In this document: piece after piece, positions 61,900 to 63,237 of the stretch
How the letters are laid out: the number at the start of each line of letters is the position of its first letter
Numbering within the stretch: position 1 is the stretch's first letter
Position numbers and translations under genes: made by a program
Notes under the pieces: model-generated
The model's database searches: none
What the model was told of the DNA's origin: nothing
Seen by the model: the letters and a program-made list of their open reading frames with translations, nothing else
DNA from: Falciphora oryzae
Taxonomy: Eukaryota; Ascomycota; Sordariomycetes; Magnaporthales; Magnaporthaceae
Reading direction: 5' to 3'
DNA length: 64,000 bases
Assembly (NCBI GenBank): GCA_000733355.1
Contig: JNVV01000001.1
Location: 3,727,642 to 3,791,641, forward strand

Positions 61900-63237
61900 A
61901 TGAGTAGCCCGAGACGGCGGATCGAGACGGATGTATGCCTACACCAGCTCCCGTGCCGCTTTCGTGGCTCTCCCAGAAGCATGGGCTGTACCCCATGGAA
62001 TGCCGACCAGGTTGCTGACTGACTGGATGTTCCCCGCCCGTCCGTCTAGGTCATGAAGTTCGTCCCGCACACGCCAGATCCGGCTCAGCCGCCCCCTCTT
62101 CCGAGAATGACGCTCGACTGACATGCTCTCCGCCAGGATGTACGACAGGAGCGCGCCGACCCTGTGCCTCTTCCGCTTACTGACGTGCGCAGGTTCATGA
62201 GCGACTACGAGGTCACTCTGGTCAACGACAACAGTATGTTGGCGCTGTCCCCCACCCTTGCTCCCCTCATCCTTGCTTCTCCGTTTGGCTCCGCTTATGC
62301 TCTCCGCCATGGCCACAAACAACTGACTAACATGTGTCTATAGTGTGAGTCTCCGGGAAATCGATCATCAGCAACGGGTCTACTCCTGCATGCTTCACAA
62401 TTGTTGCTGAGACGACTCCAACTCGCACAGGCAGGAATTCTACGTCATATTCAAGGGACCCCAAGAGAGTCAGTAACCTCATGAGCCGAAATACGGCATG
62501 GCCAGTCGGCCGGCCCCGGCGCGCCTTGACCAGCAGGAAGAAGCGGATGAGGATGGGACCGCTGACAGCCACCGAACCGGAACAGCCCCCTTCGAAGGCG
62601 GCACCTGGAAAGTCCACGTCGAGCTCCCCGACCAGTACCCGTACAAGTCCCCCAGCATTGGCTTTGTCAACCGTATATTCCACCCCAACATTGACGAGCT
62701 GTAAGTCTTCCCGGCGGGAGGCGCTCCCATGGCGAGTCGGGCGTTGCCCCAGGAAACCCAAGCGGATAGAAAAAGGAAGAAGGGAGAATTGGAAAGGCTA
62801 AAGAGGTTTTCCGGGCGAACGCCCCTCGTTTCGAACATCCCTGCAGATCCGGGTCCGTCTGCCTGGACGTCATCAACCAAACCTGGTCGCCCATGTTCGA
62901 CATGATCAACATCTTCGAGGTCTTCCTGCCGCAGCTGCTGCGCTATCCGAACCCGACCGACCCCCTGAACGGCGAAGCGGCGGCGCTACTCATGCGTGAG
63001 CCCAAAAGCTACGACGCCAAGGTCAAGGGTGAGTAGGCTAACGTGGGCCCTTTGCCTCCAAAAACGCTGAGCTGACAGGCGAGGCCGTCACAAACAGAGT
63101 ACGTACAAAAGTACGCCAACAGCGACACGACCAACGAGGGGGGCGCCGAGACCGAGGATGATGACGACATGTCCTCCGTCGCAAGCTTTGGCGACGACGA
63201 CGATGAGGAGCCGGCCGGTAAGATGGACGATGTCTAA
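61900..63237 (+). CDS. ubc8: Ubc8/UBE2H-type ubiquitin-conjugating enzyme E2 with micro-exons
   Basis: E2 enzymes carry activated ubiquitin on a cysteine; the Ubc8/UBE2H type works with the GID/CTLH ligase that degrades gluconeogenic enzymes in yeast. Eight exons: 61900..61932, 62050..62057, 62193..62233, 62344, 62431..62468, 62586..62700, 62847..63028 and 63098..63237. Total 558 nt, 185 residues, close to UBE2H. Spliced protein starts [23 protein letters not shown], then [23 protein letters not shown], the family's conserved path. The E2 core shows [18 protein letters not shown], the HPN motif (HPNIDEL) and active Cys in [12 protein letters not shown]. The tail is Asp/Glu-rich as in Ubc8. 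Exon 2 is 8 nt and exon 4 a single T; skipping the latter shifts the frame, and running on from it gives an immediate TGA. The model needs transcript support, but the core identification is firm. Confidence 0.9.
62050..62057 (+). other. ubc8: 8-nt micro-exon of the E2 gene
   Basis: GTCATGAA between acceptor CGTCTAG and donor GTTCGT. It supplies V-M and the first two bases of K in the conserved ETDVMK-FMSDYE block; without it the frame is lost. Confidence 0.8.
62344..62344 (+). other. ubc8: Candidate single-nucleotide exon of the E2 gene
   Basis: A lone T between an upstream intron ending GACTAAC...CTATAG and a downstream intron beginning with the strong donor GTGAGT. A (end of exon 3) + T + G (start of exon 5) form the ATG codon of the invariant NDN-MQEFYV sequence. 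Confidence 0.75.

What the first reader, a model, noticed from the sequence alone, without database searches (positions are those of the whole stretch)
62234..62430. Candidate one-nucleotide exon in the Ubc8/UBE2H-type E2 gene
Exon 3 ends in ...AACGACAAC-A and exon 5 begins G-CAG-GAA-TTC. The conserved family sequence needs one T between them to read NDN-M-QEF. Exactly such a T (62344) is framed by GACTAAC...CTATAG on the left and GTGAGT on the right, i.e. a full branch-acceptor and a strong donor. Skipping it shifts the frame, and extending from it meets TGA at once. Single-nucleotide exons are extremely rare (Arabidopsis APC11 is an established case); gene finders cannot predict them, so the gene is probably misannotated in relatives.
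Basis: partly seen in the sequence, partly recalled or inferred. Interest (0 to 1): 0.87.

Follow-up and report, generated by a model that had tools for sequence, protein, structure and literature searches.

The report
One-nucleotide exon in fungal UBC8 gene
A fungal ubiquitin-enzyme gene appears to be stitched together from pieces that include an exon one letter long and another three letters long; without the single letter the protein would be scrambled, and many public gene models of related moulds go wrong at exactly this spot.

Summary
In a single-copy Ubc8/UBE2H-type E2 gene (61900-63237, + strand) a lone T (62344) lies between a branch/acceptor (CTGACTAAC...CTATAG) and a GTGAGT donor. 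It supplies the middle base of Met29 (NDN-M-QEF). Skipping it shifts the frame before the catalytic Cys85. No single-intron alternative gives NDNMQEF (0 of 49). Relatives give indirect evidence: transcript-like proteins without organism names read NDN-M-[QS]EF in 73 of 73, named Pezizomycotina gene models in 19 of 93. Many failures are readable artefacts. Models of Fusarium coffeatum and F. flagelliforme run straight through the interval and fit CAG-T-GTATG after a CTRAC, with implied 47- and 52-nt introns. The serine-adding donor (62238) belongs to an artefact class (NDNS[K/M/E/T/Q/L]QEF). I saw no RNA of this species and no relative's genomic DNA. Single-nucleotide exons are known (APC11, VPS55, Fusarium CYP621A), so this is a new member of a known kind, notable as a housekeeping gene, perhaps Pezizomycotina-wide, with a 3-nt exon alongside.

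The parts
61900..61932 (+). exon 1 (33 nt), start codon, [11 protein letters not shown]
62050..62057 (+). exon 2, 8-nt microexon GTCATGAA (VMK, part)
   Evidence: intron 1 GTATGC...TAG with CTGAC at -35/-31
   Evidence: only in-frame internal exon candidate found between 62058 and 62192 (GT donors, flanking introns of about 35 nt or more); 73 of 73 transcript-like relatives have two residues between K/R and M[SN]DY; K-M-Y read-through in three named relatives
62193..62233 (+). exon 4 (41 nt), ...VNDN + A
62234..62343 (+). intron 4 (110 nt), GTATGT ... CTGACTAAC ... CTATAG
62323..62331 (+). overlapping branch-like motifs CTGAC/CTAAC, 21 and 17 nt before the end of intron 4
62344..62344 (+). exon 5, the single-nucleotide exon T (middle base of the Met29 codon ATG)
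   Evidence: relatives
62345..62430 (+). intron 5 (86 nt), GTGAGT ... CTGAG ... GCACAG
   Evidence: the same donor hexamer begins intron 8 of this gene model
62431..62468 (+). exon 6 (38 nt), G + [12 protein letters not shown]...
62586..62700 (+). exon 7 (115 nt)
   Evidence: own-genome match
62847..63028 (+). exon 8 (182 nt), carries the catalytic Cys85 (SGSVCLDV)
63098..63237 (+). exon 9 (140 nt), acidic tail and stop codon
62238..62243 (+). rival in-frame donor GTTGGC (would add a serine: NDNSMQEF)
   Evidence: judged to belong to an artefact class

Best explanation
The gene is the single Ubc8/UBE2H-type E2 of a fungus close to Gaeumannomyces, with nine exons of which three are microexons (8, 3 and 1 nt). 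The T at 62344 is a constitutive single-nucleotide exon that gives the middle base of Met29. Inferred mechanism: each flanking intron is short and is recognised across the intron (intron definition), so the exon itself needs no recognition signal. The upstream acceptor CTATAG and the downstream donor GTGAGT are one base apart, so the two splice sites can hardly be engaged at the same time and the introns go one after the other. Removing intron 4 first rebuilds a donor AACAT|GTGAGT; removing intron 5 first leaves CTATAG|TGCAG. Either order gives AACATGCAGGAA. Shown: the signals, the frame need, the fit to the family, and the pattern in relatives. Inferred: that this species' mRNA has the T, that inclusion is constitutive, and the order of splicing.
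For: Frame and letters. Of 49 in-frame single-intron alternatives none reads NDNMQEF. Enumeration of internal exons of 1-88 nt (GT donor, AG acceptor, about 40 nt or more of intron on each side) finds two in frame and open; the T scores 6.9 and the other (28 nt) -2.2 on a hand-set consensus score. Shuffles: 0 of 20,000. Family: in the five PDB alignments printed, yeast Ubc8 (8pmq, INDSMQEF) and 2onu align here without a gap; human UBE2H (8pjn, 2z5d) and 1yf9 are one residue shorter; none has an extra residue. Relatives, (120 listed of 5713): transcript-like 42 of 42 read NDN-M-[QS]EF against 12 of 76 named fungal models (Fisher p = 1.9e-21). All 210 proteins fetched: 73 of 73 against 19 of 93 named Pezizomycotina. 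Letters read back from wrong models: F. coffeatum and F. flagelliforme peptides (R[H/L]QCM) are compatible with CAG-T-GTATG, the T being fixed by the Cys codon, with a CTRAC-compatible stretch upstream and implied introns of 47 and 52 nt; 6 of 24 long inserts fit branch + YAG-T-GTRNG against 0.36 expected from residue shuffles. Beauveria, Fusarium sp. Ph1 and Diplocarpon models read NDN-M-Y, compatible with T|GTAY.
Against: No RNA of this species and no genomic DNA of relatives could be examined. The branch point of intron 5 is only CTGAG. That the short-contig proteins come from transcripts is inferred from source and contig length. The lists are ranked by likeness to a correctly joined query, which favours correct readings. 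18 of the 24 long inserts do not fit the core-plus-branch pattern. The six that do are five Fusarium rows and one Apiospora, so few independent cases; where the fit runs through Ser-Val (F. pseudograminearum twice, Apiospora) T and C cannot be told apart, and the C control fits 4 of 24. Met is not invariant in the wider family (2onu has T, human UBE2H has L).
Confidence: 0.93

Rival explanations
1. A single 193-nt intron is removed using the donor at 62238 (AT|GTTGGC), adding a serine (NDNSMQEF).
For: In frame with no stop. Three named models read NDNSMQEF exactly (P0034, P0072, P0135) and one NDNSMLQEF (P0110).
Against: GTTGGC is a poor donor by the usual fungal consensus (recalled) beside GTATGT four bases upstream. 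In 16 named models that read NDN-S-X-QEF, X is K, M, E, T, Q or L; K, M, E, T and Q are what results when the second GT of a GTNNGT donor is used in place of the first (five hexamers tried), so X looks like intron letters and not a conserved residue. 0 of 48 transcript-like rows carry the serine although the query of that search did. 42 of 44 named non-Pezizomycotina entries lack it; the other two (P0001, P0038, plant labels) did not fit the test pattern and on view read NDGLNEF and NDGMQEF.
Confidence: 0.04
2. An assembly error or a decayed gene: a base missing at an exon border makes a false need for the T.
For: A one-base need is what an indel error would look like.
Against: Trouble at the same codon in 74 of 93 named Pezizomycotina models; the rest of the gene is open and single copy; a T with full splice signals is present.
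Confidence: 0.01
3. Another in-frame route: the 28-nt internal exon 62350-62377, the good donor 62234 joined to another acceptor (62412, 62466, 62470 or 62474), or a post-transcriptional fix (editing, frameshifting).
For: These joins are open and in frame; some relatives' gene models use joins of this kind.
Against: The 28-nt exon scores -2.2 against 6.9. The other acceptors insert or delete residues beside the NDN-QEF stretch, which none of the 73 transcript-like proteins does. Nothing seen suggests editing or frameshifting; neither was tested.
Confidence: 0.02

Closest known systems
Arabidopsis APC11 single-nucleotide exon (PMC4674806; part 1 of 3 of the text read)
   Same: one constitutive base between AG and GT, needed for the frame, with a putative branch point upstream; missed in annotation
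   Different: base A in a plant gene, shown by cDNA and reporter constructs; there is no such experiment here
Plant VPS55 1-nt microexon (PMC8831610; passages seen)
   Same: conserved over a large clade, GTRAGT donors, missing from annotation
   Different: plants; a second gene copy without it in many; alternative forms in some lineages
Fusarium CYP621A one-nucleotide exon (PMC12940212; parts 1 and 2 of 3 read)
   Same: fungus, single base between AG and GT, seen through failed gene models; RNA reads in print
   Different: base G, a rarely expressed P450, reported within Fusarium; here a single-copy E2, base T, apparently across classes, with a 3-nt exon in the same gene
Fungal mitochondrial rnl-576/rnl-577 introns (PMC12308204; passages seen)
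   Same: two introns separated by one exon nucleotide in a fungus
   Different: group II introns in a mitochondrial rRNA gene, not spliceosomal and not coding
Trichoderma virens Xlr2 microexon (PMC11121469; start of the abstract seen)
   Same: microexon in a filamentous fungus
   Different: a regulated switch, not a constitutive frame-keeping exon; its size was not seen
Recursive splicing with zero-length exons (recalled)
   Same: acceptor and donor nearly abut, so stepwise removal of the interval is expected
   Different: here one base stays in the mRNA and is needed

Membership tests
single-nucleotide exon | one base flanked by a 3' splice site and a 5' splice site | tested here: met
   CTATAG-T-GTGAGT at 62338-62350
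single-nucleotide exon | needed for frame and family sequence; no better route in the interval | tested here: met
single-nucleotide exon | mature transcript of this species joins 62233-62344-62431 | not testable with these tools
   no RNA data of this species at hand; transcript-like relatives only
single-nucleotide exon | conserved in relatives at the DNA level | tested here: inconclusive
   read back from wrong protein models in Fusarium, Beauveria, Diplocarpon and Apiospora; genomic DNA of relatives could not be fetched
Ubc8/UBE2H E2 | UBC domain | tested here: met
   PF00179, E 8.5e-40, residues 12-142
Ubc8/UBE2H E2 | closest solved relatives are Ubc8/UBE2H; catalytic Cys in [10 protein letters not shown] | tested here: met
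   8pmq_E 3.2e-68, 8pjn_2 8.3e-67, 2z5d_A 3.4e-65; Cys85 aligns to Cys in 2z5d, 2onu and 1yf9; the 8pmq and 8pjn chains carry K there
Ubc8/UBE2H E2 | E2 activity with a GID/CTLH-type E3 (recalled function) | not tested
   not addressed here
recursive splice site (zero-length exon) | AG directly followed by GT, nothing retained | tested here: not met
   one base lies between them and is needed

The most novel reading that the evidence does not exclude
The 1-nt exon and the neighbouring 3-nt exon of UBC8 were fixed before the Pezizomycotina radiated and have been kept since in most classes (Sordariomycetes, Leotiomycetes, Dothideomycetes, Eurotiomycetes, Pezizomycetes). If so, a core single-copy gene of a whole subphylum of moulds depends on constitutive splicing of a one-base exon, most public models of it are wrong as are most of those seen here, and it would be the most widely conserved spliceosomal single-nucleotide exon known in fungi.
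Probability: 0.6. Interest if true: 0.78.

Novelty: new member of a known kind. Interest (0 to 1): 0.68.

Why it matters
If true, a spliceosome tuned to short introns handles exons of 1 and 3 nt as routine in a core gene, and model moulds would offer a genetically easy system to test in what order abutting splice sites are used. It also means that many public UBC8 entries of Pezizomycotina (74 of the 93 named ones seen here at the 1-nt site; 51 of 93 at the 3-nt site) carry false inserts or deletions, which structural or evolutionary work on this E2 would inherit.

Tried and rejected
Rejected: the serine donor, an assembly error, the 28-nt exon and other acceptors (see rivals). Set aside: a search for more 1-nt exons in the whole genome, because the genome gives no file. 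DNA-level comparison with other fungi was not done: by the tools' own descriptions the genome collections held are prokaryotic and the cap for metagenome scans is 0; I did not try them. The splice-site score uses hand-set weights, not a trained model, and serves only to rank candidates. In one search one transcript-like row (P0044) failed the 3-nt-site test because an N-terminal extension confused the pattern; one search uses a corrected pattern (73 of 73). Six of the 210 proteins did not fit the pattern at the 1-nt site (P0081, P0092, P0100, P0106 among the 93 named Pezizomycotina; P0001 and P0038 among the 44 others); they are counted as not reading NDNMQEF. P0064 and P0109, listed under both named and transcript-type sources, are counted as named. 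Against my reading of the 3-nt exon: the G. avenae model P0003 reads MKLF, not MKMF, which I cannot explain without its DNA. The provenance of the two Gaeumannomyces models was not established (RB594 and 'locus tag' not found in PMC11905480, passages only). Literature: ten full-text searches, nine of them on this question (one search was on Gaeumannomyces annotation). No listed title or abstract start reports a 1-nt or 3-nt exon in fungal UBC8; one search listed 10 of 264 papers, and most listed papers were not opened. One paper naming ubc8 was opened at that passage and is unrelated (PMC5007530). Only the open-licence PMC library was searched, and no search was made for a 3-nt exon by size.

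Full report
What is there. The window's last 2 kb hold a nine-exon gene model on the + strand (61900-63237) that encodes a 186-aa E2 of the Ubc8/UBE2H type: Pfam UQ_con at 8.5e-40, best solved relatives yeast Ubc8 (8pmq, 3.2e-68) and human UBE2H (8pjn, 2z5d). In the own genome (50.18 Mb, 123 contigs) only this place matches closely (exons 7, 8 and 9, at 95-97%); the 12 other matches are at 28-45% identity. The best fungal hits by name are Gaeumannomyces tritici and G. avenae. From the shared FMSDY to residue 80 both differ from the model at a single residue (position 40), and their last 100 residues are identical to it. So the fungus is a close relative of that genus (Magnaporthaceae).

The single T. 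Exon 4 ends AAC-A at 62233 and exon 6 begins G-CAG-GAA at 62431. Between them lies CTGACTAACATGTGTCTATAG-T-GTGAGT, with the T at 62344. With the T the frame is open to the stop at 63237; without it the frame shifts at residue 29 and hits stops. Forty-nine single-intron joins between exon 4 and exon 6 are in frame and open (17 with GT, the rest with GC donors); none reads NDNMQEF, and the only GTRNGT donor among them is 62234 itself, with four acceptors that all insert or delete residues. A script that tried internal exons of 1-88 nt in the interval (GT donor, AG acceptor, about 40 nt or more of intron on each side) found two that are in frame and open: the T (score 6.9) and a 28-nt stretch (-2.2) (hand-set weights). 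In 20,000 dinucleotide shuffles of the interior none held branch + YAG-T-GTRAGT. GTGAGT is also the donor of intron 8 of this model. Intron 5 lacks a CTRAC branch and has CTGAG at -24; intron 7 shows no such motif within 60 nt of its end, so the motif is not strictly needed in this gene.

A second microexon. To give the family's K-x-x-MSDYEV, a 3-nt exon GAT (62137-62139) is needed between the 8-nt exon GTCATGAA (62050-62057) and exon 4. It is the only in-frame internal exon candidate found there. All 73 transcript-like relatives have two residues between K/R and M[SN]DY, as have the 44 named non-Pezizomycotina; of 93 named Pezizomycotina models 42 have two, 30 have one (as if the 3-nt exon were skipped) and 21 something else. 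Models of Beauveria, Xylaria and Pyrenophora read K-M-Y..., compatible with GAT followed by GTAY, the retained start of the next intron. The G. tritici model keeps what corresponds to intron 2 and then reads ARMFMSDY, consistent with an AG|GAT border. G. avenae reads MKLF, which does not fit and is unexplained.

Relatives at the 1-nt exon. In the first protein search (120 listed of 5713: 42 transcript-like, 76 named fungal, 2 plant-labelled) 42 of 42 transcript-like proteins read NDN-M-[QS]EF while 12 of 76 named fungal models do (Fisher p = 1.9e-21). Over all 210 proteins from three searches: transcript-like 73 of 73; named non-Pezizomycotina 42 of 44 (the two others are plant-labelled and did not fit the pattern); named Pezizomycotina 19 of 93. 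'Transcript-like' means entries from jgi, lgn, merc or ena without an organism name, on contigs of 0.9 to 8.7 kb where a length is given; that they are RNA is inferred from this. The lists favour correct readings because the query was correctly joined. For this reason a second search used a serine-bearing relative (P0072) as query: 0 of its 48 transcript-like rows had the serine.

How the models fail is informative. Sixteen named models read NDN-S-X-QEF with X = K, M, E, T, Q or L. Using the second GT of a GTNNGT donor in place of the first gives K, M, E, T and Q (five hexamers tried); L would need GTTTGT or GTCTGT by the same logic (not run). They include Coccidioides (Eurotiomycetes) and Tuber (Pezizomycetes), which suggests the same intron border in distant lineages. 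The window's rival donor at 62238 is the same kind of shift (NSMQEF). Three Fusarium models (two F. flagelliforme, one F. coffeatum) run straight through the interval: their peptides are compatible with CAG-T-GTATG with a CTRAC-compatible stretch upstream, and the two measured (one of each species) imply introns of 47 and 52 nt; one F. pseudograminearum model implies 49 and 56 nt. F. coffeatum also fits at a second place. In all, 6 of 24 long inserts fit branch + YAG-T-GTRNG against 0.36 expected from residue shuffles; 18 do not fit, many perhaps because they are only partly retained. Controls with A, C or G in place of T gave 0, 4 and 0; C can fit because AGT and AGC both encode serine. Models of Beauveria bassiana, Fusarium sp. 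Ph1 and Diplocarpon coronariae read NDN-M-Y..., compatible with T followed by GTAY.

Mechanism. Two short introns recognised across the intron leave an exon that needs no recognition of its own. As acceptor and donor are one base apart, they can hardly be engaged at once, so removal should be sequential. Either order yields AACATGCAGGAA. This step is inference. Loss of the T would remove Cys85 and most of the fold, so inclusion should be constitutive; this is inference too.

Known or new. Single-nucleotide exons are in print for APC11 (PMC4674806), VPS55 (PMC8831610) and Fusarium CYP621A, which its authors call the first in a fungal gene (PMC12940212). Mitochondrial cases exist too: placozoan cox1 (PMC5436844, listing only) and one nucleotide between two group II introns in fungal rnl (PMC12308204, passages). 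My nine searches on this question showed none for fungal UBC8 in the listings. I file it as a new member of a known kind, notable for a housekeeping gene, a likely subphylum-wide range and a 3-nt exon in the same gene.

Noticed in passing
   Followed up: yes
62050-62057: Exon 2 is only 8 nt, so the first 41 codons are spread over six exons of 33, 8, 3, 41, 1 and 38 nt.
   Followed up: partly
63095-63104: A look-alike CAG-A-GTACGT at the start of exon 9, with a CTRAC upstream; an ordinary acceptor followed by coding letters, useful as a false-positive control for pattern scans.
   Followed up: partly
P0003 (Gaeumannomyces avenae model): Reads IEMDVMKLF where the window gives IETDVMKMF, and has a false-looking insert after IDEL; cannot be resolved without its DNA.
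   Followed up: no
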